A DNA stretch of 64,000 nt. Origin: Pirellulales bacterium. Its GTDB lineage: Bacteria > Planctomycetota > Planctomycetia > Pirellulales > JADZDJ01. How positions within the stretch are numbered: position 1 is the first letter of the stretch; each line of letters opens with the position of its first letter. The stretch covers positions 1-64,000 of the forward strand of contig DATJYL010000064.1 in assembly GCA_035499655.1 (NCBI GenBank), read 5' to 3'. Shown here in pieces: positions 5,749 through 59,510 of the stretch. The position numbers and the translations under genes were made by a program. The notes below the pieces were generated by a model. It saw only the letters and a program-made list of their open reading frames with translations. It did no database searches and had not been told where the DNA came from.

Positions 5749-5751
5749 AGT

Positions 5752-5769
5752 GTATCACTATACTAATAC
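5752..5769. promoter_or_regulatory. Likely GntR/YtrA operator
   Basis: GTATCACTATACTAATAC is an imperfect palindrome (14 of 18 positions symmetric) with GTAT/ATAC ends. It lies only three bases upstream of the GntR start codon, so the transcript would have a very short or no leader. Its position and AT-rich symmetric form fit an autoregulatory site. Confidence 0.5.
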
Positions 5770-5877
5770 GCATGGGAGCCGTCAAGCCTCGCCTTTGCCA
5801 ACATCACCGAATTGGTTAAAATGCTTCTTTCGACCGACCAAGAACTCGCCATATCATCCAATTGATCACGGAGGTGC

Positions 5878-6186: not shown

Positions 6187-6246
6187 GGATGCCTGCCGTT
6201 TTTCAACGCCCTGATCCCCGGCCCAAATGAATTTCATCAAGCGATT

Positions 6247-7398: not shown

Positions 7399-7628
7399 TT
7401 ACGCAGCGGGACCATTTCGGGGCTTAATTCTCGACGATTTGCCGGTTTGCAAGCGGCCAATTCGCTCTTTGTCGGGTTGACCCACTGTGCTATCATCACC
7501 CGCTTTTCGGAAAGCCGGTTGGGCCATTAGTTCGCTTGCTCGTCGGGCTGAGTTCCCTAGAGCTTCATTGTGGGCTGAATCCGCCAACGGGCTGATCGCT
7601 CACAATTCCCGGGTCATGGAGGACCAGA

Positions 7629-8468: not shown

Positions 8469-8524
8469 GCGCTCGTCGCTTCTTACGCTCATTCGGCGGC
8501 ATCAAGAAATAGACCACGGCTTCG

Positions 8525-9478: not shown

Positions 9479-9613
9479 GACGCCAACTCGCAGGGTTCAT
9501 GTTGCTTATGTCCGTGTGCGGTCACAATAGCAAAAACTCCAATGGCGAAACAAGATGGATGCCGGAAAAGAGGGAATTCGAAGTCCCGCGTGACGAGTCG
9601 GGAGCGCCACGCA

Positions 9614-9922
9614 TCATTCCGGCACGTTTACCCACACCGCGCCCGCTTCCACTTTCGTTTCAAACCTCGGCTGCATCACGGTGCGATTCAATTGATGCTG
9701 GCCCGAACGCACGTCGAACTGCCAGCCATGCCATGGGCAAGTGACAATGCAGCCCGACAACTGCCCTTCCCCAAGTGGCCCACCTTGGTGCGGGCAAACA
9801 CCGTCCAAAGCAAAGAATTCTCCAGCCACGTTGAACAGCGCAATCATCCGCTCGCCGGCCACCGCTTCCAGGCAGTTTCCGGGGGAACAGTCTTCCACGG
9901 CTGCGATCCGCTGCCAGGCCAT
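9614..9922 (-). CDS. Rieske [2Fe-2S] ferredoxin-like protein
   Basis: A small soluble Rieske protein of 102 residues when started at the ATG at 9922 (MAWQRIAAVEDC); a longer frame exists but its extra N-terminus is unlike the family and overlaps thiL. The cluster ligands are CPHQGG and CPWHGW, the C-x-H and C-x2-H pairs of Rieske domains. NirD/biphenyl-dioxygenase-type ferredoxins have this size. It probably passes electrons in the cytoplasm to an oxygenase or reductase encoded elsewhere. It begins 25 bp after the end of thiL, so co-transcription is likely. Confidence 0.88.
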   Translation of the reverse strand: MAWQRIAAVEDCSPGNCLEAVAGERMIALFNVAGEFFALDGVCPHQGGPLGEGQLSGCIVTCPWHGWQFDVRSGQHQLNRTVMQPRFETKVEAGAVWVNVPE

Positions 9923-9947
9923 CAGTTTCTCTCGAATTAAGTGGACG

Positions 9948-10889
9948 CTAATCGAAACGGTGTTGAAATCCGCGCGGCGCCAGCGGTTTCCATTCGCCGG
10001 AGGCACGGTGTTGTAACAATTGTTGTTCCGCCACAAATTGGCCGATGTCTGTCAAACGTACATCTTCCAACGGTTGATCGACAAGCATTCGCTCCGCGGC
10101 TTCCGGCGGAACGGCCAAAATCAATTCAAAATCTTCCCCGTCGGTCAGAGCATGTTCTAGAGCATAGACTCCATCATTCCGCTGCGCTGCAAGTTGTTCC
10201 GCTGCCGCTGCAATGGGGACTTGATCAACGTCGATCACCGCCCCGCAACGGCTTTCCTCGCACAAGTGCCACAAATCAAGCGATAGGCCGTCGCTGCAAT
10301 CAACTCCGGCGTGCAGTGGATAACGCTGGTGCAATAGAAGTGCTTCGTTCACCCGTGGCGTAACATCCAAATGCCGTCCCAAAATGCTGCCGCCGAATTG
10401 GCCTGTTACAATAATTCGATCCCCAGGCAGTGCTCCGCGGCGGCATAACGGACTCCCGGCCGTGGCTTCGCCCAGCGCGGTGATGCTGACCACCAGCGGC
10501 CCGTCCCAACTGTTGGTGTCACCCCCGGCAATGGCGATGTGAAATTGCTCAGCCAGCGGCAACATTCCCTCGTACAGTTCCCTCGCCAGTTGCCCACCGT
10601 TTTGCCGAGGCAGGTTAAGCGCAATCACCGCCGCCAACGGACGCGCAGCCACGGCTGCCAAATCGCTCAGATTAATCGCCAAGGCCTTATGGCCGATCCG
10701 CTGCGGCGAATGAATTTTTAAATCAAAATCGATTCCGTCGGCAATTAAATCGGTCGTTACCGCCAGATCGCCACGTCCTGCGGTTGCCAACAGCGCCGCA
10801 TCGTCACCGATGCCCAATTTGAGCAGCGGATGCGGCGGCAACCGCTGACGCAGCCAACGCAGAAAATCGGCTTCCATGCCACCGACCAT
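9948..10889 (-). CDS. thiL: Thiamine-monophosphate kinase
   Basis: ThiL phosphorylates thiamine monophosphate with ATP to give the cofactor thiamine diphosphate. The 313-residue protein has the AIR synthase-like fold: GIGDDAALL near residue 27 (Mg-ATP binding Asp pair), TTDLIADGIDFD, the ALAINLSDLAAVAA helix, AGGDTN, and in the C-terminal domain GVDCSDGLSLDL and ALTDGEDFELIL, all family blocks. It is the first gene of a pair with the Rieske gene. A 52-bp gap separates it from the upstream htrA gene on the same strand. Confidence 0.95.
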   Translation of the reverse strand: MVGGMEADFLRWLRQRLPPHPLLKLGIGDDAALLATAGRGDLAVTTDLIADGIDFDLKIHSPQRIGHKALAINLSDLAAVAARPLAAVIALNLPRQNGGQLARELYEGMLPLAEQFHIAIAGGDTNSWDGPLVVSITALGEATAGSPLCRRGALPGDRIIVTGQFGGSILGRHLDVTPRVNEALLLHQRYPLHAGVDCSDGLSLDLWHLCEESRCGAVIDVDQVPIAAAAEQLAAQRNDGVYALEHALTDGEDFELILAVPPEAAERMLVDQPLEDVRLTDIGQFVAEQQLLQHRASGEWKPLAPRGFQHRFD

Positions 10890-10941
10890 ATCGGTGCGCC
10901 CCTAGCGACGCAAGTGGCGGCAGGCGATTTCGTTCGCAATC

Positions 10942-12312
10942 TTACCGCCGTTCCAGCGACACCGGCAGGTGGCCGTAAAGCGTGTCGTTGCCACGCAAAA
11001 TGTAGAACTTGATCGGCTGGATCTCGGCGAAGTCAGGCCGGTTCAGCACGTAATCAACGTTTTCCTGGCTGACCGTTTCCCAAATGTGCATTCCCACTAA
11101 CACGTCGCCGTGCCGAATGCCTTGCTTGGCTGCCGGACTGTCTGGCCGCACCGCCACGACCGACAAGCCTCCGTGGTACCGCGATTGATACAGCGCGAAC
11201 TGTTGCGGCGGAAGCGGTTGCAATTTCAATCCCAAAAGTTCCCACGTGGCGTCGCCCGGGGTGCTGGCCTTGCTTGGCAAATCGACCAGCGCCAGTTTCA
11301 GGTCCACCGGCTGATTGTTGCGCTGGACCGTGATCGAAACATCCTGATCGACCTTGCGACCCAGCATGGCTCGTTCAAAATCGGCCGAACGCGCCACCGG
11401 CTTGCTGTCGACCGCAGTGATAATGTCACCCGCCTTCAGCCCGCTTTTGGTGGCGGGACTGTCGTCGTCAAGGGCCGTGATCACCGCCCCGTCTGGATGT
11501 CCTGGCGTGTCGCTGGTTTTCACGCCGTGCCACTTACGCTCTACTTTTTCCACACTCAGCAGCTTGGCCGCCACGGCCATGGCTTTATCGATGGGAATGG
11601 TGAACCCAATTCCTTGGGCGCCGGCTCGCACGGCCACATTGATGCCGATCATTTCGCCGTCGATGTTCAACAGCGGTCCACCGGAATTGCCGGGATTGAT
11701 GCTGGCGTCGGTTTGAATTAAATCTTCGTAGCTTTGTGTGTCGCTAATTTGCACGTTGCGGTGCAAAGCGCTGACAATTCCCCGCGTAACGGTATTTTCG
11801 TATCCGAAGGCGTTCCCCAAAGCGATGACCGTTTCGCCCACCATCAAATCACTGGAAGTGCCGATGGTGATGACCGGTAATTTTCGCGGCACGTCAACTT
11901 TGACAATGGCCAAATCGTTCTTCGGATCGGTCGAAATCAACTGGCCGACACAGGAAGTGTTGTCCGCCAGCGTGACTTCCAGCTTCGTGACGCCGTCAAC
12001 CACGTGAAAGTTGGTAATGATGTAGCCCCGTTCATCAATAATAATTCCTGTGCCCATCCCGTTAACTTTGTGCGGGCCTTCTGGGCGAGATAAAGGGTCG
12101 TCGTCGCCGATCAACGTCTTCTGGCCGTGGATATTAACGACCGAATCGTGCGCCGCTTCGACCGCCTGAACAATCGCCGTGCGGCGCGCTTCGGAGGCGT
12201 GGCTGAAATGATTGCTGGCCAGTGGGGAATACCCCAACACGCCGCTCACGGCAATCCAGCACAGCGTGCTTCTAATACATCGAGGCACGCGACGAACTAG
12301 GCAGGTAGACAT
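10942..12312 (-). CDS. HtrA/DegP-type serine protease with two PDZ domains
   Basis: A 456-residue S1C protease exported by an N-terminal signal (about 1-35). The catalytic triad is visible: His in TNFHVVDG, Asp in PKNDLAIVKVD and Ser in NPGNSGGPL. The first PDZ domain covers about 255-350 (GAVITALDDDSPATKSGLKAGDII) and the second about 365-455 (LSVVAVRPDSPAAKQGIRHGDVL). It should work in the periplasm as a protease-chaperone for misfolded proteins. It is the first of two HtrA genes in the window; the one at 52.6 kb has a membrane anchor and one PDZ. The start is the first ATG of the frame. Confidence 0.92.
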   Translation of the reverse strand: MSTCLVRRVPRCIRSTLCWIAVSGVLGYSPLASNHFSHASEARRTAIVQAVEAAHDSVVNIHGQKTLIGDDDPLSRPEGPHKVNGMGTGIIIDERGYIITNFHVVDGVTKLEVTLADNTSCVGQLISTDPKNDLAIVKVDVPRKLPVITIGTSSDLMVGETVIALGNAFGYENTVTRGIVSALHRNVQISDTQSYEDLIQTDASINPGNSGGPLLNIDGEMIGINVAVRAGAQGIGFTIPIDKAMAVAAKLLSVEKVERKWHGVKTSDTPGHPDGAVITALDDDSPATKSGLKAGDIITAVDSKPVARSADFERAMLGRKVDQDVSITVQRNNQPVDLKLALVDLPSKASTPGDATWELLGLKLQPLPPQQFALYQSRYHGGLSVVAVRPDSPAAKQGIRHGDVLVGMHIWETVSQENVDYVLNRPDFAEIQPIKFYILRGNDTLYGHLPVSLERR

Positions 12313-12653
12313 GGAGGGCCGATTGGCGGTGGGTGGCGTCGCTGGAATTGGCCAGGCTATGTTGCCCGATCACCGGAAAATCACGGCGTCGCCAGGCAGG
12401 CAGTGCGTCGCGATACGCTGGTTAAATCGGTCCACCAGTTACAGCCGCTTAAAACGCTACCACGCGGCCCGAATAGCTTGCCTGATTGCGATTAACGCTG
12501 CTAAAAACTGACGATTAAACTCGCCAATTCTTCATAGAGAAGCTTTACGGGTTCGGCAAACATTGACGTATCAGCCGAGCCAATCGCCGTTTTCGCGGGG
12601 AAGTGCCCAGGACAACCGTCAAAATTCCCCCATTTTATCCCGGCTCGGCGTTG
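12313..12653. other. Intergenic spacer without a recognised gene
   Basis: A 341-bp gap upstream of the minus-strand htrA gene and downstream of the minus-strand oxidoreductase gene. I see no convincing reading frame, tRNA or strong hairpin. It should contain the htrA promoter and any terminator of the oxidoreductase gene, but no clear motif stands out. Confidence 0.5.
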
Positions 12654-13910
12654 TTATGATTCGCCATCCGGCCCTTGGCTCGACGATTGATTCGAGGGCG
12701 GCGCCGTCGTTTTCCGCTCCGACTTCCCGATGAATGCCAGCGGCTGCAATAACAAATAAATGCCGCAAACTAGCAACAGTAAATACGGCCAACGATCCAG
12801 CAAATTCGCTAACTGCACCCAGCCCGCTTGCACGGCCAGCAAATGCAACATCGCCACCAACACCACCAGGACCAAGCCTGCCACCAGCAGGCCGCAGCCG
12901 ATCGAAGTCATGGTCCCCTTGAACGTGCCGATGTCTGTGAATTCTTCCCGATGCAAATCAATCGTCCGTCCCCGCGCCAGGCTGCGATCAATTGTTTCTG
13001 CTAATTCCACCGTTCGGGCAGCTTCGGCCCAGGTGGGGTCAACGGGCTCGCCTTCGCGAGCGGCGGCAAGTTTTGCAAGCGCCGTGGAGGCTGGATCCCA
13101 ATCTACATAGTCTTTGACGGTCGCATTCGGTAATGTGCGAATTTCTAGCCGCCAGGGCGAATGGTCTTCCGGCATCCACAACACTGACTTTCCCTGCGAG
13201 CCAACCAGAGTCAACCGCCCCCCAGGCTGGTCTTCCACAGGCGATACGCACCATCGGCAAACCAGTTCCTGCTCGCACGTCATTTGCACCGTGAGATTGG
13301 CATACGGCCCCACCGAAGTACCTGTACCGCTGCCTAAGGCGTGCATCTTGGTCGCGTCGCCAGCGACGAACTGCATTAAATCCGCGTCGATCGCAAACTG
13401 CCGCAATACTCCCTCTCGATTCCGCTGCGGCAAAAAACGCTCGAACACAACTTGCTCAATGCCTCCCATCGCCGACGACTTTCCCTGCTCAACCAGCGAG
13501 TGCATTTCCGTTGCCACAGGATGCCACCGCGCGGGTAAATACGGCAAAACGATGGAGCGCGATTCTTCGCGGATCATTTCCAATTCGTAACATTCCAGCA
13601 TCGACAAATTGATCGGATGCGACACCAACGTCGGAATACCGGTCTGAATCAACCTCCGCAATTGTTCGATCCGCAAGTCTGGCTGATCGCCCGAAGGTTG
13701 GTTGGCAGCCACCACCACTGCGTCCACCGAATTAGTATCCAGCGCGTTTTCCCAATCGGCAATCATCCGCGCGCTTCGAGCAATGGACTTGGCTTCCGCC
13801 GCGCGGGCGGCCGACGCATCAATCATCACAATTTCGTCGTGGCCATCGCGCGCCGCTGCAGTCGCTACGGCAAGCGTTGCTTCGTCAACGCCAAGCAGGG
13901 CAATTCGCAT
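12654..13910 (-). CDS. Gfo/Idh/MocA-like oxidoreductase with C-terminal membrane tail
   Basis: A 418-residue protein. The first 120 residues form a Rossmann-like domain (RIALLGVDEATLAVA, with SVDAVVVAANQP as the beta4 region), but the classic GxGxxG is altered to GVDEAT and the EKP motif at the end of the nucleotide domain is replaced by SHPINLS. A substrate-like domain runs to about residue 320. The C-terminus has two hydrophobic helices (about 338-362 and 377-400) and a polar tail. The tail would hold the enzyme on the cytoplasmic face of the membrane. The lost motifs suggest changed or absent cofactor use. The biological role is unknown. Confidence 0.6.
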   Translation of the reverse strand: MRIALLGVDEATLAVATAAARDGHDEIVMIDASAARAAEAKSIARSARMIADWENALDTNSVDAVVVAANQPSGDQPDLRIEQLRRLIQTGIPTLVSHPINLSMLECYELEMIREESRSIVLPYLPARWHPVATEMHSLVEQGKSSAMGGIEQVVFERFLPQRNREGVLRQFAIDADLMQFVAGDATKMHALGSGTGTSVGPYANLTVQMTCEQELVCRWCVSPVEDQPGGRLTLVGSQGKSVLWMPEDHSPWRLEIRTLPNATVKDYVDWDPASTALAKLAAAREGEPVDPTWAEAARTVELAETIDRSLARGRTIDLHREEFTDIGTFKGTMTSIGCGLLVAGLVLVVLVAMLHLLAVQAGWVQLANLLDRWPYLLLLVCGIYLLLQPLAFIGKSERKTTAPPSNQSSSQGPDGES

Positions 13911-14020
13911 GATTATCGATTCACTTGCGGCTATAAATTGTCGCCCGCACTTCCTTCCGCTTGCGATTTATCACGACGGCCCAGTTACGATCGATTCCAC
14001 CGCACGATGCGTCCAATTTG

Positions 14021-14791
14021 TCACAGCCGCCGAATGTGAAACCCGCCGTCCACGTGAATGCGCTCCCCGGTGCTGAACGGAAACGCATCGCCCACAATGG
14101 CCGCCACCGCGTGGGCCACGTCTTCCGGACGCCCCCATCGCTTAATGGGCGTCAGGCCGCCGGCGATCAGGCGATCATACTTTTCCTTCACCGCCGCTGT
14201 CATGTCGCTCTCGATGATGCCCGGGCAAATTTCGAACACGCCAATCCGCTCCTCGGCCAATCGCACGGCAAACAACTGCGTCAACATTGGCAGTGCTGCT
14301 TTCGTCAGGCAGTAATCGCCCCGTTCGGTCGAGACGGCAAACGCCGAAATTGAAGAAATGTTGATGATTTTCCCCCCCGGCATCTTTCCCGCGCGGATCA
14401 ATTCCACCATTTTTTGCGCCGCCAACTGCGTCAGAAAAAACGGGCCCTTCAAATTGGTGTTGAACACCTGGTCCCACGACGCCTCGGTAACCTCCAGCAA
14501 ATCTTTGCGGCCAGGAGAAGTGATGCCCGCATTGTTAACCAACACATCGAGCCGGCCGAACTCGTTCAACATGGCCTCGACCAGCGCCCGCCGATCAGTT
14601 GCCGAACCCACGTCGCCCTTCAGCGCCACGGCCTGCCCACCGCTGTCGACAATTTCCTCCACCACTTGTTCTGCGGCCTCCCCCCGCGAAGCATAATTCA
14701 CTCCCACGGCATAGCCCGCCCGGGCCAATTCTTGGGCAATGGCCCGGCCTATTCCGCGAGAAGAGCCGGTCACCAACGCAGAAAGTGGCAT
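14021..14791 (-). CDS. Short-chain dehydrogenase/reductase, FabG-like
   Basis: A classical SDR of 256 residues from the ATG at 14791 (MPLSALVTGSS), chosen because the cofactor motif TGSSRGIG then falls at its usual place near residue 8; the longer frame adds 38 low-complexity residues. NNAG, the catalytic Ser in ISSISAF, and Y-x-x-x-K in DYCLTKAAL are all present, and the C-terminus ends with the usual GERIHVDGG. It probably reduces a 3-oxo group with NADPH. The exact substrate is open: fatty-acid synthesis, or sugar or polyketide reduction. Confidence 0.9.
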   Translation of the reverse strand: MPLSALVTGSSRGIGRAIAQELARAGYAVGVNYASRGEAAEQVVEEIVDSGGQAVALKGDVGSATDRRALVEAMLNEFGRLDVLVNNAGITSPGRKDLLEVTEASWDQVFNTNLKGPFFLTQLAAQKMVELIRAGKMPGGKIINISSISAFAVSTERGDYCLTKAALPMLTQLFAVRLAEERIGVFEICPGIIESDMTAAVKEKYDRLIAGGLTPIKRWGRPEDVAHAVAAIVGDAFPFSTGERIHVDGGFHIRRL

Positions 14792-15051
14792 GACAGAAGC
14801 AGGTGGTGAATGGTGAGAATGTGAGGGGTGTGTTAGCCGCGGCCTGGCCGGATGATCTGCGATTGTATGGTCTATTCGCTCCCGGTTTAGCACCAGCCAC
14901 AGCAACTCAGACTCGTGTTTTTACACTAACTCTTCGAGGACAACCTGACATTGCCGTGTAAAGCTAGCTTTGCTATGCTAGCACGAATTCAGCAGGCGCA
15001 AAAGAGACGACGCTTGCCGAACGACGAGGGATTTCGATTCGTATTTGAGTA
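14792..15051. other. Intergenic spacer between divergent SDR and csrA
   Basis: No gene is seen. The stretch contains a GCTAGC pair around 14962-14985 and a GGTTTAGCAC word near 14883 that echoes the palindromic repeats at 24220 and 41817. The right side runs into the 72-bp repeat at 15052. Confidence 0.45.
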
Positions 15052-15123
15052 GTGGGCCAATTTGAACATAGCCCGACTGTGTCAGTCGGGAAAAGCGGCT
15101 GTCGGAATTTCAAATTGTCCCAC
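15052..15123 (+). repeat. 72-bp MITE-like hairpin repeat, copy 1
   Basis: The element is bounded by near-perfect 15-bp inverted ends (GTGGGCCAATTTGAA at 15052-15066 and TTCAAATTGTCCCAC at 15109-15123, 14 of 15 paired). It holds an internal perfect hairpin CCCGACTG-tgt-CAGTCGGG. The same 72 bp occurs in inverted orientation at 63284-63355 with only two differences, and the central 23 bp recur at 51875-51897. It carries no reading frame and ends 55 bp before the csrA start. Confidence 0.85.
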
Positions 15124-15178
15124 ACCCGTATTTGACGCAGGGAAGCCAATAGCTTTTTCTGATCCAGGAGGGACGACC

Positions 15179-15406
15179 ATGCTTGTGCTATCGCGCCGGG
15201 CGGGTGAAAGAATTCAAATCGGCGAACAAATCGAGGTCACCGTGGTCCGGATCGGCCCGGGCGTTGTGCGCATTGGCATCGAAGCGCCCGTAGAAATGAC
15301 CGTGGTCCGCGAAGAAATTCGACCGGGATTTCTTCCCGCTTCTCGGCAACTCCCCGTCGCTCAGCCGGATGTGACTCAAACAGAAATTGAAACCCAGAAC
15401 GGTTAG
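15179..15406 (+). CDS. csrA: Carbon storage regulator CsrA
   Basis: CsrA is a small RNA-binding dimer that blocks or stabilises mRNAs by binding GGA motifs. The 75-residue protein starts at the ATG at 15179, placed behind an AGGAGGGA Shine-Dalgarno. It opens with MLVLSRRAGERIQIG and has the VVRIGPGVVRIGIEAP beta strands and a VVREEI segment before the C-terminal tail, matching the family; the usual GxxI binding loop is present. A longer frame from 15062 runs through the 72-bp repeat and is rejected. It stands alone, convergent with ftsQ (12-bp gap). Confidence 0.95.
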   Translation: MLVLSRRAGERIQIGEQIEVTVVRIGPGVVRIGIEAPVEMTVVREEIRPGFLPASRQLPVAQPDVTQTEIETQNG

Positions 15407-15418
15407 TGTGCTTCGAAC

Positions 15419-16315
15419 TCAACGGGCCGGGCTGTCGACCACATGCCGCAGGTCGCGCTGATTCGCCGGGGCCGTATCCAAAGTTTTATAGTCGCTGGCC
15501 AATTTCAGAAGCCGCGCCAGTTTTTCCGCCGCCTTGCTTTCGTCGCTGGCTTCCTCGCCAGGGGCTGCTCCCCACACAAACACGGTCCCCTGCCGGGTAA
15601 CAATCTGCAATCCCGCGCCCTCCGGGCTATTGCTATCCGCCGCCCGTTCAGACTGAATGTGGTGCAATCCGAGCGTCGGCCACGCATCGGTCAATAGCGC
15701 GGTCAGTTTGGCTCCTTGTTCCACGCTGGCATCGCCCCAGGGCGTTCCGATCAGTCCCCGGGGGCTCGTCGATATGCCGACGATGCGCGGATAGTTTTGC
15801 GCCTCGGTTGCGGAAAAGCCGGCGGTGGGCAACAGTACGCCTTGCGCATCGACCGGCAACAAACCGCCCGGCACTTCTACCATCGCCACGGGCTGGCGAT
15901 AAACCAAATCGATTCGAATGTGCGCCGGATAAGAAGTATGTACGCCCGACACGCGCTCCACCCAAGGATCAAGTCCAAACGCTTCAGACAAAAGTTCGGG
16001 AACGTGCTCGTCCAGGATCGATAGGTTTTTGTTTAATCCAGCTTCGTGAATCACCTCCGCTTTAATGTCGGTGTGAATCCAGGGCGGCACAGGCGTAATT
16101 TCTACATCGTCCACCGACACCAAGTACTCCGGCTGTGCCGCCACGTGCGCCCGTACTCTTCGCCACACCGCCACTGCGGCCGCCACGCCCGCAACAAGCA
16201 AACACATTATGACCAGAACGCGCCGCCCCCATGTCGACGTGCGAATCCATAAGAGCGGGCCGATCGGCAATCTACGCCGCACACCACGCGAATCCTTTTT
16301 GGCTGCTGTACTCAC
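15419..16315 (-). CDS. ftsQ: FtsQ-like POTRA-domain division protein
   Basis: A 298-residue protein with a basic cytoplasmic N-terminus, a single membrane helix (about 32-52, VLVIMCLLVAGVAAAVAVW) and a periplasmic POTRA-like domain (about 65-135: LVSVDDVEITPVPPWI and VERVSGVHTSYPAHIRIDLVYRQPVAMVEV). The last pattern, ending in R-x-P-x-A, is typical of FtsQ/DivIB. It is the last gene of the mur cluster, the usual ftsQ location after ddl. Since ftsA and ftsZ do not follow, its partners here are unclear. Confidence 0.8.
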   Translation of the reverse strand: MSTAAKKDSRGVRRRLPIGPLLWIRTSTWGRRVLVIMCLLVAGVAAAVAVWRRVRAHVAAQPEYLVSVDDVEITPVPPWIHTDIKAEVIHEAGLNKNLSILDEHVPELLSEAFGLDPWVERVSGVHTSYPAHIRIDLVYRQPVAMVEVPGGLLPVDAQGVLLPTAGFSATEAQNYPRIVGISTSPRGLIGTPWGDASVEQGAKLTALLTDAWPTLGLHHIQSERAADSNSPEGAGLQIVTRQGTVFVWGAAPGEEASDESKAAEKLARLLKLASDYKTLDTAPANQRDLRHVVDSPAR

Positions 16316-16324
16316 GCTGCCGCC

Positions 16325-17434
16325 TTATTGTTTCGTCCGCCATTTTCGACTGGTCTTCCGGCAATTCCTTCCTGCGCCAAGGATTGAACCGCTGCTGCTC
16401 GATGCCACTGGCTCTGCTGGTGTCGTACGCTTCTCATCATGACCATGTTTCCACCGCTGTCTGGCGTCGCGCACCATCCAATCCACAAGTGCCGGCATTT
16501 CTATTCCCGCTCCCCTCGCCGCCCGCGGCGCCAAGCTTCGCGCGGTCATGCCGGGAATGGTATTCACTTCCAGCACCCACGGCTGATGATGATGATCGAG
16601 TATGATATCGACCCGCACCAAGCCCGCGGTCCCCAGTGCCTCGGCCGCCGAAATTGCGGTCCGATAAAGTTCGGCCTCCACCGCCGCCGGCAGCCGCGCA
16701 TCCAGTCGATACTCAGTTTTCGGATTGGAGTATTTTGCATCGTAGGTGAATAACCGCTGCGGCGCGACAATCTCGATCATTGGCAACGGATCGCGCCCCA
16801 AGAGCGAAATCGTGATTTCTCTCCCCGTTACAAATGGCTCGGCCATTATCAAATCGTCAAATGTCGCCGCCACCGCCACACTTCGCGGCAAATCGCTCAC
16901 CCCGGCGGCAACGCTGATCCCCAAACTCGACCCTTGCCCTTCCGGCTTAATCACCAACGGAAAGCCGAGCGCCGCCAATTGCTGCCCCAAACGGCTGCTA
17001 AATCCCGTGCCGTTAGATGTCGCACTGCCGGGTACGCTGTACCGACGAAACTCGGCTGCTGAAAATACCACACTTGGCGGTGTCGGCACGCCGCACTGCG
17101 CAAACCGCGCTTTCGCCGCGGATTTGCTCATCGCCAATCCCGAAGTCGCTGGTCCGCTCCCCGTATACGGCACGCCCCATTGTTCTAATTCGTGTTGGAT
17201 GCGGCCATCTTCGCCGGCGCCGCCGTGCAGCGCCACAAAACAAACATCGAACGCCGGCCAATCGATCGCCGCCAAATTTATTTCCGCGGGATCCATCAAG
17301 ACCGGTTCATGTCCGGCCAGCGCCAATGCCAACGCCGTTTGACTTCCGCTGGCAAGACTGATTTCGCGCTCGGCAGAATCCCCGCCGGCTAGCAGTGCGA
17401 TGCGCAGGCCATGTGTAAAGGCGTCGCCATCCAT
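16325..17434 (-). CDS. ddl: D-alanine--D-alanine ligase
   Basis: Ddl makes the D-Ala-D-Ala dipeptide used by MurF. The 369-residue ATP-grasp enzyme shows LLAGGDSAEREISL at the N-terminus, FVALHGGAGEDG, GVPYTGSGPATSGLAMSKS, VIKPEGQGSSLGI and VNTIPGMT (metal and D-Ala binding). An insertion of about 18 residues between FSAAEF and GFPLVIKP and a basic 35-residue C-terminal tail exceed the usual length. The gene lies 9 bp before ftsQ and 46 bp after murB in the same orientation. The reaction takes place in the cytoplasm. Confidence 0.95.
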   Translation of the reverse strand: MDGDAFTHGLRIALLAGGDSAEREISLASGSQTALALALAGHEPVLMDPAEINLAAIDWPAFDVCFVALHGGAGEDGRIQHELEQWGVPYTGSGPATSGLAMSKSAAKARFAQCGVPTPPSVVFSAAEFRRYSVPGSATSNGTGFSSRLGQQLAALGFPLVIKPEGQGSSLGISVAAGVSDLPRSVAVAATFDDLIMAEPFVTGREITISLLGRDPLPMIEIVAPQRLFTYDAKYSNPKTEYRLDARLPAAVEAELYRTAISAAEALGTAGLVRVDIILDHHHQPWVLEVNTIPGMTARSLAPRAARGAGIEMPALVDWMVRDARQRWKHGHDEKRTTPAEPVASSSSGSILGAGRNCRKTSRKWRTKQ

Positions 17435-17480
17435 GGCGGTTATCCACGTAAGTTCGATTGGTCAGTTGGGAGCTGCCATA

Positions 17481-18374
17481 TCACCAAATCTCAATTTCCA
17501 GTTCCAACTCCACGCCCAAATGTTCCGCCACCCGGCTGCGCATCACGTCGATCAATTGCAGTACATCCTGGCTGGAAGCGTTGCGGTCGACCACGACAAA
17601 ATTCGCATGCCGGTCGCTCACTTCCGCCCCGCCGACCCGAGTTCCTTTTAGCCCGGCCTGGTCGATCAACATGCCGGCGCTAATGCCACGCGGATTTTTG
17701 AAAATGCAGCCGGCGCTTTGATGCGCCAACGGCTGCGCCGCCTTTTTCACAATCCATTGCTTTTGCATCCGCTTGGTCAATTCTTGCGGATCGTCGGTCT
17801 CCAATTGAAATTGCGCCGACAATATCGCCAACTCGTCCAAGCTGCTGTGGCGATAGGCAAACACCAAATCTTCTCGCTGGCGCGAAATCATCTCGCCGTC
17901 GCGTGTCATCACCTCGGCCCGGCAGGTCCATTGGCCGATGTCGCCGCTGCTGGAACCGGCGTTGCCATGCAAAGCGCCGCCGATGGTCCCTGGAATGCCC
18001 ACCATCGTTTCCAATCCGCCCAGGCCGGAGCGAACCGCTGTCGAAATAACATGCCCCAATCGCGCCCCGCCTCCAGCGGTCAGCAGTTGCTTTTCAACAT
18101 GGATTTGGTTGAACGCCGGCGCGGCCAACCGCACCACCACACCCGGCACGCCCTCGTCGCGCACCAGCAAGTTCGATCCGCCCCCCAGCAATCGAATCGA
18201 CAGCCCCTCGGCCGCCGCACGACGCACCAGCGTTTGCAACTCCTCGATGGTTCGTGGCTCGGCGAAATACTCTGCCGCTCCGCCAATGCCCATCCACGTA
18301 AGGGGCGCTAGCGGTTCATGCAACCGCACAATTTCGTCGAACCCGCTTTTGAAACTCGTCGAAGATTTTCCCAA
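17481..18374 (-). CDS. murB: UDP-N-acetylenolpyruvoylglucosamine reductase
   Basis: MurB reduces UDP-GlcNAc-enolpyruvate to UDP-MurNAc with NADPH and FAD. The 297-residue protein has TWMGIGG, IRLLGGGSNLLV (FAD binding), GIPGTIGGALHGNAG and SAGCIFKNP, where the Cys takes the place of the catalytic Ser seen in type I enzymes; the length and absence of the type I extra domain fit type II MurB. Its start overlaps the end of murC by 59 bp in another frame, so translation is probably coupled. An in-frame ATG 27 codons later would cut the conserved N-terminus. Confidence 0.94.
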   Translation of the reverse strand: MGKSSTSFKSGFDEIVRLHEPLAPLTWMGIGGAAEYFAEPRTIEELQTLVRRAAAEGLSIRLLGGGSNLLVRDEGVPGVVVRLAAPAFNQIHVEKQLLTAGGGARLGHVISTAVRSGLGGLETMVGIPGTIGGALHGNAGSSSGDIGQWTCRAEVMTRDGEMISRQREDLVFAYRHSSLDELAILSAQFQLETDDPQELTKRMQKQWIVKKAAQPLAHQSAGCIFKNPRGISAGMLIDQAGLKGTRVGGAEVSDRHANFVVVDRNASSQDVLQLIDVMRSRVAEHLGVELELEIEIW

Positions 18375-53889: not shown

Positions 53890-56800
53890 CTATACGTTTT
53901 CGGCGGGGACGCGCAAGTTGAAGCGTTCCTGAACGATGGCCAGCCAATCGAGCGGGGGCCAAGCGTAGGGGCGGAATTTTTCCAGTCGGCCTTCTTCTTC
54001 GTTGTGGAACAGCGCCACGTTGGGCCCCAATTTGCTGGCCACGGGGGAATCGATGAGATGACTGCTGTCGTTGGCGCTCATTTGCAACAGCACGCGGAGG
54101 GCGAATTCGCGCAGAGCTTGGCGATCGAACGAGCGCTGCACGGCGGTGAACGAATCGCACCAAGCCAATGTATACACGCCGACGGCGGGCCCGTCGCGCA
54201 GAATGTTGCCCAGCAGTTGGGCGGGGGATGGTGCTTTTTCGCCGCCGCGGAAGGAATAGCCCAGGTCGCTTTCGTCTTTTCTCAAATCGCGGAAGCGGCC
54301 GAGATCGGAAATGAATAGGTAAATGGCCGCAGCCTGGCGGTCATCGGCCCCTTGCCGCCGATCCACTTCCTGAGCGATTTCGGCCAAAGTTGCGGGCAAT
54401 TCGCGCCGGCTGGCGGATTGCAGCGGGTGGGGCAACACGGTGGAAAACGCCGCCAAACCACCGCGGTAGTCAGCCAAGGGTAGATCGATGGGCAAATCGG
54501 CCGGGCGATCGTGCTCCAAAATGTAGAACCGCGCAGGGCTGCCGGCGGCCAAGCTGGCTGCCGCTCCCCCTTGCGAACGGGGCCGATGTTGGGCCGCCAG
54601 GCTTATCAGGGCGGAAGCCAGCAAGCCGATTGCAGGCTCGGCTCGCTGGCCGACAATGAGCATGTTGTCGCCGCTTTGCGGACGGAACACCGCGGCGGTG
54701 GGATCTTTGATGGCGATGGCTTCGCCCAGCCAGGCATGCACGGGGGTCGATTGCACGGGCCAATCGGCGGCGCGAAGCAGGTCGCTTAAACCGCGATTGT
54801 TGCGGATATCGGCGGGGAGATTGCCTTCGAACACAATCGGCGCGGGCTGGGGTTTAAGGGTTTGTTCCGCCACGCGCTGCTGGGTAAGTTGTTGCAAACC
54901 GTGCAAGTAAATTTCGCGTCGCTCCTCGCCCAGCCAGACAATTTGAAACGGATGGTTGCCCTGGACGGTGCCGTTGGAATCGTTGTAAATGGCTTCGCCG
55001 GGGCGCGACAACAAGCGGGCGGCGGAGTTTTCTTCGCTCAAAATCAGATGGGCGTCGGCCTCGCTGCACTGCAGCGCGATGCGGACGGCCATTTGCCCCA
55101 ACGTGCTGCGGGCCAGGCTGTAGGCACCGCCGAGAGTTTGTGAACCCAAGAGGACGTGCATGCCGAAGGCACGGCCTTGGCGAACGAGTCGATCCAAAAG
55201 CAGGGCGGCGTCCTGGGCGAGTTTATCGTCGTCAGTGAAGAGTTCTTGAAATTCGTCGACGATGAGCATGATGCGGGGCATCGAATTCGCGCCGGCGGCC
55301 GCGCGGTAGCCGGCGATATCTTGCGCGCCGACTTTACGGTACAAATCGCCGCGGCGTTTCAACTCGGCATCGAGCCGTTCGATGACGCTGAGGCCGAATT
55401 CCCGTTCGCTTTCGATGGCGATGACTCTGGCATGCGGCAAATGATGCGTGGCATAGGTTTTGAATTCGACCCCTTTTTTGAAATCGATGAGGTACAGTTC
55501 GATTTGCTCCGGGCTGTATGTCAGGGCGAGATTCGTGACCAGCGCGTGGAGGAAGGTAGATTTTCCGGATCCGGTTTTTCCTGCAATGAGTGCATGCTGC
55601 GAAGTGCCTTCGCCCAGTTGCAAGTATTGGAGCTTGGTGGCGCCGGCGCGGCCCAGCGGCACGCGGATATTTCCGGCGGTATCGCCGGTCCACCATTTAT
55701 CGCGCGACGGAGCGACGTAATCGAAGGGCACTTCCACGCGCTTGGCGGCCTTTGCGCCACGACCGACGATTTGCACCAGCGGCGTGAATTGCTCTTCCGG
55801 CGGCGGCGATTCCAAACGGAGCGGATATTTTTCGAAATCGGCATCCTGCCATACGAATTGCTTGCCGTTCCAATTGAGCGTAAGCGTGTGACGCTCCACG
55901 TCTTTCATTTCGAAGGCGGGCGGGAGCGGCAGCTTGACATCGTTCACCACTAGCACGTATACGCCGCAGCGAGCGCCGCTGCTGGCAATGCTGGTGAGGC
56001 GACGGGCCGCGGTTTCGGTAAAGTTGACCGGGAAATTGGCGACTACCAATACACGGAAGGGCTCGGCCACTTCGCCGGCAAAGACGTTGTATTCGTCGAT
56101 CGAGTGGAATTCGTTTCGCAAATACTTTTGGATGACATTTTCCATTTGCTCAGTCAAATCGGAAAGCCGGGCTTCAATGTGCGCCGGCTCCGTCCAAATG
56201 CGATTGGTGACCAGCAGTTCGTCGTGGTCGGCCAGGTGCATGAAGCCGGCAAAGTTTTCGCCCAGGCCCACGGGATCGATAATGGTAAAGCGCACCTTGC
56301 CCGGCGGAATGGAGGTGAGCATTCGCAGCATCATGTCCTGGACGGCTTCGATGGCGATGTGGCGGCCCTCGCCGGCGGCCTTGAACAACAGCGAGGCATT
56401 TTGCGGAAAGGGCAGCAGCGCAGGAAGATCGAACTGCGTGGGAATGAGCCCATTGAGCTGCGCGTCGGTGGAGATAGCGCCGGGGATGGCGTGCAAATCG
56501 ACGTGATATAGTCCGAAGGGCAAGGTGGGTGGGGCAGCAGTGGGAGGTTGCCAGGTATTCCAGCGGGGATCGTTCCAGGCGGGAAAGAAGTGCTGATGTT
56601 GCCGCACGTTTTCTTCGATGATGGCGCGGACCTTAGCCATGCCGGAGCGCCATGTTTCGGCCAGGTTGTTCCAGGCCTGATCGCGCCGCCCGCGGTTGGC
56701 CAGCGTGGCGGCGGCTGCGTGTTCTTGGGCGGAGCGAAGATCGGACTGGTAGCGCTGCTGGATTTCGTCCAGCCGGTGGGGATAAAAAGCGTGGGCCTCG

Positions 56801-57912
56801 GCCAGGGCGGAATCGCGGGTTTGTAAGAGCTCCGCTTCCGTGTGTTTGTGCTTTTCGTGAGCGGCCTGCAGAGCGGAATCGTGGCGGGCAGTGACCTCGG
56901 TGATGCTGGTTTCGAATTTTTCGCGAGAGGCTTTCAGCTCGTTGTCGCGGCGCTCGACAATTTTTCGGGATTCCTCTTTGCAGCGAGTTTTGGCTTGTTC
57001 CAACGCAGCGAAGCGGAGCCCTTCGGATTGATGCAGCATGGTGTGAAACAGCTCGTACGGTTCTACTGCGGTAGCCTTGGCTTGGCGATACAGCCAAACG
57101 AGGAGCGTTACCGAAGCTGCCGCGCCGACGGATGCACCCACAATGAGCCACGTCCAGCTTGTCCAGTTGCGGGTACCGAAAATCAGGTAACCCAAACCAC
57201 ATCCCAGGGCCAGCAGCAGAAATACGAATCCAGCCGGCCGCTTGCCAATTAGTAATTTGGGCCAGCGGAGTTGGCGGAACGCTTCTAAGTGTTTGACGGC
57301 GGCCACAGCCAGGTCGCCGAGCTGCACAGCGGCATTTTCGGGAGGAGTTTCTTCCGTGCGCCATGTTTGAGCCGGATCCGAGGCGGCAGTTTCGGCCTGC
57401 ATGGTTGGAGCCCGCCGCAGGCGTCCCAAGCGGCAGACGGCGAGATACCGATTCGCCACTTCGACCGCCTGCCGCAACACATCGTGCCGGGCCAGAATCT
57501 CTTGGTGGTCTTGATCGAATTGCAATTTGGGAGCGGTGTGCGTGGCTTCGTATACGGTGTTGGTTTCCCAGTTTTCCTCGGTCAGCCTTTTCTTGGCCTT
57601 GTTTTGGGATTTGGTGAACTCGGACTCGATGTGTTTGAGGGATGACTGCAACTCGCCGGCGGCGATGTCGTGGCGGGTTTCGTAGGCGGCTTGGGCTCCG
57701 GCCAGAGCGGAATCGAATTCGCGCTGCGTGTTGTCGCGGTCCATTTGGAACCGCATGATGGCGGATTGGCGGGCGTCGCTTAGCTCGCGTTGAATGCGGG
57801 CCGTGACGGTTTCGAACTCGGCGCGCATGTGCCGCTCCGCCTGTTCGCGTTCGGCGGAGAACCGATACAGCTCGGCCAGCATTTCACGTTGAGCGGCGGT
57901 GGAAAAAGACAT
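53890..57912 (-). CDS. EssC/EccC-like FtsK/SpoIIIE ATPase with coiled-coil and membrane segments
   Basis: A 1340-residue protein. Residues 1-160 form coiled coil, about 226-246 and 253-275 are two membrane helices, and 285-435 is again coiled coil. Three ATPase-like modules follow. The first (about 485-720) has lost its P-loop (KAAGEGRH at 511-518). The second (about 735-1010) is a full FtsK/SpoIIIE domain with Walker A GKTGSGKS at 778-785, YLIDFKKGVEF, and Walker B IMLIVDEFQE with D886/E887. The third (about 1040-1340) is degenerate (GQRAEP at 1088-1093). This three-module, two-helix plan is that of EccC/EssC motors of type VII secretion, but FHA domains are lacking. It is the last gene of a minus-strand operon with three small WXG100-like proteins. 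DNA translocation is an alternative role, though no gamma domain is seen. Confidence 0.8.
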   Translation of the reverse strand: MSFSTAAQREMLAELYRFSAEREQAERHMRAEFETVTARIQRELSDARQSAIMRFQMDRDNTQREFDSALAGAQAAYETRHDIAAGELQSSLKHIESEFTKSQNKAKKRLTEENWETNTVYEATHTAPKLQFDQDHQEILARHDVLRQAVEVANRYLAVCRLGRLRRAPTMQAETAASDPAQTWRTEETPPENAAVQLGDLAVAAVKHLEAFRQLRWPKLLIGKRPAGFVFLLLALGCGLGYLIFGTRNWTSWTWLIVGASVGAAASVTLLVWLYRQAKATAVEPYELFHTMLHQSEGLRFAALEQAKTRCKEESRKIVERRDNELKASREKFETSITEVTARHDSALQAAHEKHKHTEAELLQTRDSALAEAHAFYPHRLDEIQQRYQSDLRSAQEHAAAATLANRGRRDQAWNNLAETWRSGMAKVRAIIEENVRQHQHFFPAWNDPRWNTWQPPTAAPPTLPFGLYHVDLHAIPGAISTDAQLNGLIPTQFDLPALLPFPQNASLLFKAAGEGRHIAIEAVQDMMLRMLTSIPPGKVRFTIIDPVGLGENFAGFMHLADHDELLVTNRIWTEPAHIEARLSDLTEQMENVIQKYLRNEFHSIDEYNVFAGEVAEPFRVLVVANFPVNFTETAARRLTSIASSGARCGVYVLVVNDVKLPLPPAFEMKDVERHTLTLNWNGKQFVWQDADFEKYPLRLESPPPEEQFTPLVQIVGRGAKAAKRVEVPFDYVAPSRDKWWTGDTAGNIRVPLGRAGATKLQYLQLGEGTSQHALIAGKTGSGKSTFLHALVTNLALTYSPEQIELYLIDFKKGVEFKTYATHHLPHARVIAIESEREFGLSVIERLDAELKRRGDLYRKVGAQDIAGYRAAAGANSMPRIMLIVDEFQELFTDDDKLAQDAALLLDRLVRQGRAFGMHVLLGSQTLGGAYSLARSTLGQMAVRIALQCSEADAHLILSEENSAARLLSRPGEAIYNDSNGTVQGNHPFQIVWLGEERREIYLHGLQQLTQQRVAEQTLKPQPAPIVFEGNLPADIRNNRGLSDLLRAADWPVQSTPVHAWLGEAIAIKDPTAAVFRPQSGDNMLIVGQRAEPAIGLLASALISLAAQHRPRSQGGAAASLAAGSPARFYILEHDRPADLPIDLPLADYRGGLAAFSTVLPHPLQSASRRELPATLAEIAQEVDRRQGADDRQAAAIYLFISDLGRFRDLRKDESDLGYSFRGGEKAPSPAQLLGNILRDGPAVGVYTLAWCDSFTAVQRSFDRQALREFALRVLLQMSANDSSHLIDSPVASKLGPNVALFHNEEEGRLEKFRPYAWPPLDWLAIVQERFNLRVPAENV

Positions 57913-57990
57913 GCGTGATTTGAAGAGAGTGGCCCAGCGGGCGGTGCGTTATCGATTTTCGGCTGGATGAAGTTTCGAATGATTTGGAGT

Positions 57991-58212
57991 CTATTCGCAT
58001 TCACGTTCGGCGCGGCCCAGCACTTCGGCCAGGGCGGCGATGGCGTCCAAGGCGGCCGATAATTGCGGTTCCAGCGGATCGAGATAGTTTTCCTCGAAGC
58101 GGAGCCGGTTGTCGTCGTGCCAGTGTTCTTTGGTCGACTCCCACTGCAGGCGCAAGGTTTTGTAGGCGGAGGCAATTTTCGCGGAGCCGCTCGTTAAATC
58201 GGCAATTTTCAT
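57991..58212 (-). CDS. Short WXG100-like helical protein
   Basis: A 73-residue, highly charged helical protein. The central HWHDDNRLRF places Trp, Asp at +2 and Phe at +8, the spacing of the WXG100 turn, and it is nearly superimposable on TWRDQEHERF of the 90-residue protein upstream in the operon. Helices precede (AKIASAYKTLRLQWEST) and follow (LEPQLSAALDAIAALAEVLG). Its ATG overlaps the stop of the 222-residue gene (ATGA). It may pair with another small protein of the operon as a substrate or assembly factor. Confidence 0.7.
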   Translation of the reverse strand: MKIADLTSGSAKIASAYKTLRLQWESTKEHWHDDNRLRFEENYLDPLEPQLSAALDAIAALAEVLGRAERECE

Positions 58213-58877
58213 GGGAGGCTGGACTCCGCGGCGCGGGGGTTAACGCTGCCGGCTGGCTGGGGCGATGAGCTGTTTTGAGGTGTAGATTGATCCGCATTTT
58301 TTTCGGCCGGCGAGGCGGCAAGCTCGTCGGTTGGCCGAGCCATCGACTGGCCAGGCTTGTTGGCGGCGAGCTCTTCCCAGGTGATGGCCGCGGGAGTTCT
58401 GCCCGAGGTGTACTGTTCCAAGGCCATGCTCATCCGCTCCAAAAGGACCATAGCGTGTGGAATATCGCCGTCGAGCAGGCCCATGAGTTGTTGCACGGGT
58501 CCTTGAAATTCGTCGACGGCGCGGCGGGCGGCCATGGTCCAGCGCCGCACGGTCTGAAGCTTCTCTTCGGCGTGTTCCAGGCGATGCTTGGCCATTTCGA
58601 CCGCTTTTTTTTCGTCGTCGCAGGAGGGAATGTAATCGCCAATTTGCTTGTAAGTGCGGGCGTGGGCCAATTCGTCTTTGGCACGAGCCACGGCATCATA
58701 ACCGCGGCGGACTTCCGCTTGCCAATGGCCGGGTTGCTCCACGGTAATCCAATCCATGGCGCGGCGGACTTCCAATTGGATGTCGGTCAGCGCGCGGCGG
58801 ACGGCGCCGGCAAAATCGACCAGGTCGGCGCGAAATTCGCCAATGGCGGCAACCTCGGTGACGCGGGCTTCAGACAT
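58209..58877 (-). CDS. Helical protein with WXG100-like turn and disordered tail
   Basis: A 222-residue soluble protein. The first 150 residues are long amphipathic helices with coiled-coil character. GHWQAEVRRGYD places a Trp, Ala at +2 and Tyr at +8, like the WXG100 turn, between two helices (VRRALTDIQLEVRRAMDW and AVARAKDELAHAR). The last 60 residues are rich in Ser, Pro, Gln and Asn and probably disordered. No signal peptide is present. It could be a longer WXG/LXG-type secreted partner or a cytoplasmic adaptor. It lies second in the operon, 49 bp after the WXG100-like gene. Confidence 0.65.
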   Translation of the reverse strand: MSEARVTEVAAIGEFRADLVDFAGAVRRALTDIQLEVRRAMDWITVEQPGHWQAEVRRGYDAVARAKDELAHARTYKQIGDYIPSCDDEKKAVEMAKHRLEHAEEKLQTVRRWTMAARRAVDEFQGPVQQLMGLLDGDIPHAMVLLERMSMALEQYTSGRTPAAITWEELAANKPGQSMARPTDELAASPAEKNADQSTPQNSSSPQPAGSVNPRAAESSLP

Positions 58878-58926
58878 GAATGGCCCTGCTCAGAAGTGAT
58901 AGAAATCGGAAAGGATCGGTACTTTT

Positions 58927-59199
58927 TTAGCGCTGCTGCAAATACTCTTCAATTCGCTCCGCCTTTCGCAGCAAGAACGGAACGTACTGATTGGTGATGT
59001 CAACGAACCGTGATAAGGTGCGCAGTTGTTGCTCGAATTCTTCGAGGAAGCGTTCGTGCTCTTGGTCGCGCCAGGTGGAGCCGAGGGTGGTCAATTGCCG
59101 TTGGGCGTTTTGCATTTGCTCCAGCATTTCGTCGTTGAATTGCTTGAGATGTTGCACAAAGCGGCGCAATTCAGCCGGATCGACAATGGCCTGCGGCAT
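58927..59199 (-). CDS. WXG100-like protein
   Basis: A 90-residue protein from the ATG at 59199 (MPQAIVDPAELRRFVQHL), behind GAGGAA; the longer frame is rejected. It is a helical hairpin: helix 1 (DPAELRRFVQHLKQFNDEMLEQM), a turn TWRDQEHERF with Trp and Phe at +8 as in ESAT-6-type proteins but Asp in place of Gly, and helix 2 (LEEFEQQLRTLSRFVDIT) ending in a charged tail. Size and plan match WXG100 substrates of type VII secretion. It is the first gene of the operon that ends with the EssC-like ATPase. Confidence 0.78.
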   Translation of the reverse strand: MPQAIVDPAELRRFVQHLKQFNDEMLEQMQNAQRQLTTLGSTWRDQEHERFLEEFEQQLRTLSRFVDITNQYVPFLLRKAERIEEYLQQR

Positions 59200-59239
59200 A
59201 GGAAAATTCCTCGCGAATTTGAAATTCCACCCTAACTCT

Positions 59240-59245
59240 ATCATA
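59240..59245 (-). promoter_or_regulatory. Possible -10 element of the WXG100-like operon
   Basis: On the minus strand this reads TATGAT, 41 bp upstream of the start of the first operon gene. A -35 match is weak, so the assignment is tentative. Confidence 0.3.
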
Positions 59246-59313
59246 CCCGCTGGGGGGCGAAAAAAACGACCTCTAGCCAAGGTTTTCCGTGCTGGCAGAG
59301 ATGATTTATCGGC

Positions 59314-59343
59314 TTGACCCAGCGTCGGAAACGGTCCTATAAT
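59314..59343 (+). promoter_or_regulatory. Sigma-70 promoter of dnaG-rpoD
   Basis: TTGACC at 59314-59319 and a consensus TATAAT at 59338-59343 are separated by 18 bp. The spacing and sequence fit the housekeeping sigma factor, which the second gene of the transcript encodes. About 165 bp of leader precede dnaG. Confidence 0.75.
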
Positions 59344-59510
59344 CGACGCGTTGCCACGGATGGCAAGCCGGTTTTCATTCAGAGGGTTGAAAATTGGCAA
59401 TGGTAGGGTCAGGGTGGGCCCTCGGGCCGAGTTCTTTGCATCGATGACCTAGAAGTTCGACGCCGGCCACATCCCCCTTTCCCCCCGTAAGCACCGCAAA
59501 GGAGTTGTCG

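What the first reader, a model, noticed from the sequence alone, without database searches (positions are those of the whole stretch)
53890..59199. Type VII-like secretion operon in a planctomycete
Four minus-strand genes in tight order encode a 90-residue WXG100-like protein, a 222-residue helical protein, a 73-residue WXG100-like protein and a 1340-residue membrane FtsK/SpoIIIE ATPase with three tandem ATPase-like modules. The combination of WXG100-type partners and a three-module two-helix motor is the core of ESX/Ess systems, best known from Actinobacteria and Firmicutes. No EccB/D/E, EsaA, EssA/B or YukD homologue is visible, so this would be a minimal or divergent version in a diderm cell.
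Basis: partly seen in the sequence, partly recalled or inferred. Interest (0 to 1): 0.88.

Follow-up and report, generated by a model that had tools for sequence, protein, structure and literature searches.

The report
Type VII-like motor operon of planctomycetes
Most planctomycete bacteria of this class carry a four-gene set resembling the core of the type VII protein exporter of Gram-positive bacteria (one membrane motor and three small helical proteins), inherited like a household gene set; relatives were reported in 2012, but what it moves is unknown.

Summary
Four minus-strand genes encode a 90-aa WXG100-family protein (W; Pfam PF06013 above its cut-off), a 222-aa helical hairpin with a disordered tail (P2), a 73-aa W-x-D hairpin (P3) and a 1340-aa two-helix membrane ATPase.

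The ATPase is EccC/EssC-like: Foldseek ranks T. curvata EccC first. Only its middle module has Walker motifs. W carries WRD, not WXG, and its closest solved relative is H. pylori HP0062.

The gene order holds in 55 of 59 loci with enough upstream sequence. ATPase, W and P2 co-occur across 298 class genomes (232, 225 and 226) and are absent together in at least five families. They persist when scattered to different loci. Isosphaeraceae with two motors have two P2 genes but one W. The motor tree follows taxonomic families, so inheritance is mainly vertical.

The kind is not new. Zhang et al. 2012 already listed planctomycetes with solo WXG proteins and a one-active-module ATPase, calling them mobile T7SS versions; CoCoNuT loci carry a relative without transmembrane helices. 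New here are the membrane anchor, the fixed P2/P3 partners, the single shared W and the chromosomal, vertically inherited state. Membership in ESX/Ess is not shown: YukC and YukD are absent and no YxxxD/E signal is visible. Secretion is inferred, not shown.

The parts
58927..59199 (-). W: 90-aa WXG100-family protein with W-R-D in place of W-x-G; first gene of the operon
   Evidence: PF06013 29.9 bits > cut-off 27.3; all 16 aligned homologues match PF06013; profile best solved match H. pylori HP0062 3fx7 E 7e-10, then EsxB E 4e-7; WRD in 91/92
58209..58877 (-). P2: 222-aa long helical hairpin (H5-79, H87-137, H139-157) with a disordered C-terminal tail
   Evidence: AlphaFold2 mean pLDDT 78.9, block means of 84 or more in residues 11-150; no significant fold match in the PDB; family present in 226/298 class genomes
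57991..58212 (-). P3: 73-aa WXG-like hairpin with invariant W31-x-D33; starts inside the P2 stop (ATGA overlap)
   Evidence: profile similarity to W E 3e-4 at 41% probability; W and D invariant in 129/129 hits
53890..57912 (-). ATPase: 1340-aa EccC/EssC-like membrane motor
   Evidence: PF01580 E 8e-35; TIGR03924 EccCa E 8e-38 but 131 bits against a cut-off of 509; homologues in 232/298 class genomes
57403..57912 (-). ATPase residues 1-170: charged, probably coiled-coil N-terminal region
   Evidence: sequence inspection; among the least conserved parts of the protein; no structure predicted for it here
57199..57255 (-). ATPase residues 220-238: first hydrophobic (transmembrane) segment
   Evidence: hydropathy scan; 43 of 60 planctomycete homologues show two such segments and the rest mostly one, often longer, stretch
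57088..57153 (-). ATPase residues 254-275: second hydrophobic (transmembrane) segment
55708..56535 (-). ATPase module 1 (residues 460-735): degenerate, no P-loop, carries IDPVGLGENF
   Evidence: weak EssC match in 13/18 members (best E 1.9e-5)
54913..55695 (-). ATPase module 2 (residues 740-1000): the only module with Walker A (GKTGSGKS, 55558-55581) and Walker B (IVDEF)
   Evidence: exactly one GxxxxGK[ST] in 64 of 65 homologues
53908..54855 (-). ATPase module 3 (residues 1020-1335): degenerate, no P-loop
   Evidence: weak EccCb match in 3/18 members

Best explanation
This is a compact, membrane-anchored, type VII-like protein translocation module. The ATPase sits in the cytoplasmic membrane through its helix pair, with the coiled coils and the three-module motor in the cytoplasm. 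Only the middle module burns ATP; the flanking degenerate modules are docking or regulatory rings. W and P3, two W-x-D helical hairpins, most likely pair as an Esx-type dimer that docks on the motor. W is the shared adaptor. P2, a long hairpin with a fast-evolving disordered tail, is the motor-specific partner or cargo that W and P3 escort. ATP hydrolysis then drives the hairpin complex across or into the inner membrane. Shown: gene set, order, co-occurrence, module states, hydrophobic segments, fold similarity, mainly vertical inheritance. Inferred: dimer partners, docking and export to the periplasm.
For: The fold of residues 455-1340 ranks T. curvata EccC first (E 1.6e-30 over 977 columns); other EccC/EssC structures come next, ahead of FtsK (best about E 3e-16). 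W passes the WXG100 cut-off and its profile finds HP0062 and EsxB. Four-gene order in 55 of 59 loci with more than 2 kb upstream. ATPase, W and P2 in 232, 225 and 226 of 298 genomes, absent in the same genomes in families f2, f3, f9, f13 and f17. All parts are kept when unlinked: G029 and G073 on one contig, the g69 genomes. In 26 genomes of family f16 there are two or more P2 genes, usually with two ATPases, but one W. W is more conserved (about 60% identity to the window protein) than P3 (about 35%) and P2 (about 29%), which suits an adaptor.
Against: No EssB/YukC or YukD in the genome; EccB was not found, but its control was silent; no pore component is known. W ends in YxxxR, not YxxxD/E. 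No toxin, immunity or other effector gene is conserved next to the operon, and W is the only PF06013 protein in the genome. The fold alignment to EccC has a high overall rmsd (16 A; TM-score 0.39), so the geometry between modules is not reproduced. Secretion was never tested in this lineage, and outer-membrane passage is unaddressed. The N-terminal third of the ATPase was not modelled.
Confidence: 0.5

Rival explanations
1. A non-secretory, membrane-tethered motor. W, P3 and P2 are permanent subunits or adaptors of an ATP-driven machine that remodels proteins or nucleic acids at the membrane (stress or surveillance role), as suspected for relatives embedded in stress and defence loci.
For: Exactly one W per genome even with two motors and two P2 genes; W is the most conserved of the small proteins; no cargo genes nearby. 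Plasmid relatives sit beside VWA, PP2C, kinase and CARF genes, TerD genes or Hsp70/GrpE genes. CoCoNuT loci carry the same kind of motor and WXG100 pair (PMC11090510).
Against: The closest folds are protein exporters. The planctomycete motors have a hydrophobic helix pair. The planctomycete operons are not next to defence genes.
Confidence: 0.28
2. A toxin delivery system: the motor exports polymorphic toxins encoded elsewhere, with W as chaperone, for competition between bacteria.
For: A Helicobacter plasmid relative pairs W-like and FtsK genes with an HNH endonuclease and an SMI1/KNR4 (immunity-type) gene. Zhang et al. 2012 file the kind under toxin trafficking.
Against: No linked toxin or immunity family; no further PF06013 protein in the genome; mainly vertical inheritance of the motor is unlike toxin loci.
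Confidence: 0.12
3. A DNA translocase for chromosome segregation or division in a lineage with unusual cell division.
For: FtsK/SpoIIIE ATPase core; membrane helices; planctomycete division is unusual (general knowledge).
Against: A separate canonical FtsK lies elsewhere in the genome (contig C110, 218 bits). No FtsK gamma domain match. Closer by sequence and fold to EccC/EssC than to FtsK. Several genera lack the system altogether.
Confidence: 0.05
4. A mobile module recently acquired, as the 2012 footnote suggested for such operons in several phyla.
For: Relatives exist on plasmids of Helicobacter, Caballeronia, Rhodococcus and Deinococcus.
Against: The motor tree needs 19 changes for 18 groups (minimum 17; shuffled mean 48.1). 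Present in about three quarters of the class sample. The planctomycete rows form one set apart from the five long-branched plasmid rows.
Confidence: 0.05

Closest known systems
'Solo WXG' plus YueA-like ATPase with only the middle of three HerA/FtsK domains active (Zhang et al. 2012, PMC3482391, Table 1 footnote 6)
   Same: Planctomycetes are named there; WXG protein plus a three-module ATPase with only the middle one active, as found here.
   Different: Described there as mobile versions of T7SS. Here the set is chromosomal, mainly vertical, class-wide and fixed with two further partners, P2 and P3. The footnote gives no anatomy, so which planctomycete loci were meant cannot be checked.
EssC-like ATPase and two WXG100 proteins in Type III-A CoCoNuT loci (eLife 2024, PMC11090510)
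   Same: Three ATPase domains with only the central one active, an N-terminal coiled coil, and two WXG100-type proteins, one without the motif.
   Different: Those motors lack transmembrane helices and sit between VWA genes in a predicted RNA-targeting restriction system. The planctomycete motor has a helix pair and no such neighbours.
H. pylori HP0062 (PDB 3fx7, 2gts)
   Same: Closest solved relative of W by profile (E 7e-10); same W-R-D turn; a hairpin dimer whose gene clusters with one for an FtsK/SpoIIIE-domain protein (PMC3397514).
   Different: HP0062's function is unknown. Its motor and any P2/P3 equivalents were not compared here.
T7SSa EccC and T7SSb EssC/YukB with EsxA/EsxB
   Same: Best fold and sequence match of the motor; WXG100 partner; membrane helices N-terminal to the motor.
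   Different: One active module; probable coiled coils on both sides of the helices; no accessory membrane proteins found; W-R-D motif; no YxxxD/E signal; curated model cut-offs missed.

Membership tests
Type VII secretion system (ESX/Ess) | EccC/EssC-type membrane ATPase with tandem FtsK/SpoIIIE domains | tested here: inconclusive
   Fold and sequence closest to EccC/EssC, helix pair present, but NCBIfam EccCa and EssC scores (131 and 102 bits) are far below their cut-offs of 509 and 778
Type VII secretion system (ESX/Ess) | WXG100 partner or substrate | tested here: met
   PF06013 above cut-off; NCBIfam TIGR03930 below its cut-off (23.1 against 44.85)
Type VII secretion system (ESX/Ess) | Accessory proteins YukC/EssB and YukD | tested here: not met
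   PF10140 and PF08817 absent from the genome while the B. subtilis control rang
Type VII secretion system (ESX/Ess) | EccB | tested here: inconclusive
   PF05108 not found, but no control genome rang
Type VII secretion system (ESX/Ess) | EccD, EccE, EsaA, EssA | not tested
   searches were kept for other questions; no such gene is conserved beside the operon
Type VII secretion system (ESX/Ess) | YxxxD/E export signal at the C-terminus of a partner | tested here: not met
   W ends in EEYLQQR-type sequences, YxxxR; P2 and P3 not scanned systematically
Type VII secretion system (ESX/Ess) | Motor-dependent secretion | not testable with these tools
   needs a secretome experiment
WXG100 protein family | Protein of about 100 residues matching the family profile | tested here: met
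WXG100 protein family | W-x-G motif in the turn | tested here: not met
   W-R-D in 91 of 92 and W-Q-D in one
Solo WXG plus one-active-module YueA-like ATPase (Zhang 2012) | Three FtsK/HerA modules, only the middle one active, with a WXG protein | tested here: met
Solo WXG plus one-active-module YueA-like ATPase (Zhang 2012) | Mobile occurrence | tested here: not met
   motor tree follows taxonomic families; class-wide presence
CoCoNuT-associated EssC-like ATPase | No transmembrane helices; VWA/CoCoNuT gene context | tested here: not met
   helix pair; no such conserved neighbours
Chromosomal FtsK/SpoIIIE | FtsK gamma/4TM domains; sole FtsK of the genome | tested here: not met
   no such domain match; separate canonical FtsK on C110

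The most novel reading that the evidence does not exclude
A vertically inherited, housekeeping type VII-like exporter of a diderm phylum that works with a single membrane motor and three hairpin proteins, without any EccB/D/E or Ess membrane partner: the simplest known type VII-type machine, in which one adaptor (W) serves two motors while each motor has its own P2/P3 pair.
Probability: 0.2. Interest if true: 0.82.

Novelty: new variant of a known kind. Interest (0 to 1): 0.58.

Why it matters
Type VII secretion is usually treated as a system of Actinobacteria and Firmicutes with a large membrane complex. A four-protein version kept by most members of a diderm class, lost as a unit and retained even when its genes are scattered, would define what the core of such a machine is and offer a small system for studying how WXG100 adaptors and one-active-module motors work. 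The shared-W, private-P2/P3 arrangement in Isosphaeraceae makes the adaptor-against-cargo question directly testable.

Tried and rejected
Chromosome or division translocase: rejected, because a separate canonical FtsK is present and the motor is nearer EccC/EssC.

Conjugation coupling ATPase: TcpA and VirB4 score far below EccC.

Defence system: PADLOC gives only ATPase-core cross-matches (SspH, mad8, HerA) and only weak, coiled-coil-like matches for the small proteins; no conserved defence neighbours.

Extra conserved neighbour gene (pore or effector): none found. The large clusters in the neighbour analysis are shadow ORFs of the operon itself.

P2 as a WXG100 or LXG domain: profile comparison with W weak (7% probability); Pfam only noise; no PDB fold match. 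Its class stays open.

Matching the flanking modules to particular EccC domains (D0-D1-D2 or D1-D2-D3): unresolved, weak matches only.

Literature searches for WXG100 in Verrucomicrobia and for ESX in planctomycetes gave nothing further of use.

Full report
Observation. The four genes are present exactly as described, on the minus strand, tightly spaced (49 nt, 4-nt overlap, 78 nt). On one side they are divergent from dnaG and rpoD, and on the other convergent with an HtrA-type protease gene. W passes Pfam's WXG100 cut-off and is the only PF06013 protein in the genome. P3 has no database match of its own, but its family shares the W-x-D core with W: the profile comparison gives E 3e-4 at only 41% probability, and W and D are invariant in 129 of 129 hits. 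P2 is predicted as a long helical hairpin followed by a disordered tail and resembles no solved fold significantly.

The motor. The 1340-aa protein has a low-conservation N-terminal part with two hydrophobic segments (residues 220-238 and 254-275) followed by three modules. Only the middle module carries GKTGSGKS and a Walker B DE. Across 65 homologues, 64 have exactly one GxxxxGK[ST]. The AlphaFold model of residues 455-1340 (mean pLDDT 79.9) finds T. curvata EccC as best PDB match (E 1.6e-30 over 977 columns), then other EccC and EssC structures, then FtsK and TcpA at E 3e-16 and weaker. Overall TM-scores are modest (0.39), so the modules resemble those of EccC but their relative placement is not reproduced. 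NCBIfam EccCa and EssC models match but far below their cut-offs.

Conservation. In a class-wide sample of 298 genomes, 232 have the motor, 225 W and 226 P2. Comparing the lists by hand, the motor is present without W in 8 genomes, mostly fragmented assemblies, and W without the motor in one. Families f2, f3, f9, f13 and f17 each contain genomes with the set and genomes without it, which implies several separate joint losses or gains. Of 59 named loci with more than 2 kb upstream, 55 hold all four genes in order (54 by script, plus L040, where one search shows the three small genes but the ORF start misled the distance rule). No other gene family is conserved nearby. In a phylum-wide sample 62 of 392 genomes match, including families outside the class.

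Broken operons are informative. In genus g69 of family f16, W, P2 and P3 sit together without a motor, and the motor lies about 1 Mb away in G104. G029 and G073, each a single-contig genome, keep the motor and P2 at distant sites. In 26 genomes of family f16 there are two or more P2 genes, usually with two motors, but only one W. The seven second-copy loci examined have P2-P3-motor without W. Family f16 contains Singulisphaera acidiphila: G164 contig C1 has the same length as NC_019892.1. The simplest reading is that W is a shared adaptor while P2 and P3 belong to a particular motor.

Inheritance. A tree of 65 motor sequences needs 19 changes to explain 18 group labels (minimum 17, shuffled mean 48.1). 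This is mostly vertical. The five plasmid rows have very long branches and their placement is unsafe. The second copies form one fully supported clade; its exact origin is unresolved.

Relatives elsewhere. Plasmids of Caballeronia, Helicobacter, Rhodococcus and Deinococcus carry motors matching this family (E 2e-34 to 7e-98). Four of the five loci have a W-like protein (E 1e-25 to 1e-6). Their contexts are conflict or stress loci: VWA, PP2C, kinase and CARF; HNH endonuclease with SMI1/KNR4; TerD; Hsp70 with GrpE. The closest solved relative of W is H. pylori HP0062, reported to have WRD and to lie in a cluster with an FtsK/SpoIIIE-domain protein (PMC3397514).

Prior art. Zhang et al. 2012 (PMC3482391, Table 1 footnote 6) state that planctomycetes among others have solo WXG domains with a distinct YueA-like ATPase of three domains with only the middle one active, and call these mobile versions of T7SS. 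The CoCoNuT paper (PMC11090510) describes the same motor type with an N-terminal coiled coil, no transmembrane helices and two WXG100 proteins, and cites Anantharaman et al. 2012 for the operon as a mobile stand-alone secretion system. The kind is therefore known. What this work adds is the membrane-anchored, chromosomal, mainly vertical branch with two fixed extra partners, its joint losses, its retention when scattered and its single shared W.

Function. Export by a type VII-like mechanism is the best-supported reading (about 0.5). A non-secretory membrane-tethered machine is the main rival (about 0.28). Absence of YukC and YukD was tested with a working control. Absence of EccB is not firmly shown, and EccD, EccE, EsaA and EssA were not searched. 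A separate canonical FtsK makes a segregation role unlikely. Nothing computed here shows secretion.

Noticed in passing
L112 (Helicobacter sp. NHP19-012 plasmid), 5734-10136: Compact plasmid version: an 89-aa W-like protein, HNH endonuclease, SMI1/KNR4 family protein, 77-aa protein and an 823-aa FtsK-type motor, which looks like a toxin-immunity pair inside the module.
   Followed up: partly
L113 (Caballeronia sp. SBC2 plasmid), 4873-17695: W (89 aa, E 1e-25 to the planctomycete profile), motor, CARF protein, two VWA proteins, PP2C and kinase in one run: a TerY-P/CoCoNuT-like extended locus.
   Followed up: partly
L116 (Rhodococcus pseudokoreensis plasmid), 4472-11342: A related FtsK-type motor directly after Hsp70-family, TPR and GrpE genes; no clear W homologue.
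   Followed up: no
L117-L122, L127 (second copies in family f16): Second operon P2-P3-motor without W; its motors form their own fully supported clade, not placed next to the first-copy motors.
   Followed up: partly
L124-L126 (genus g69 of family f16): W-P2-P3 cluster with no motor beside it; the only detected motor of G104 (L123) is elsewhere and groups weakly with the second-copy clade.
   Followed up: partly
   Followed up: partly
window 59199-59505: The operon shares its upstream region with divergently transcribed dnaG-rpoD genes; a sigma-70-like match (TTGACC-18-TATAAT) on the + strand at 59314-59343 would serve dnaG.
   Followed up: no
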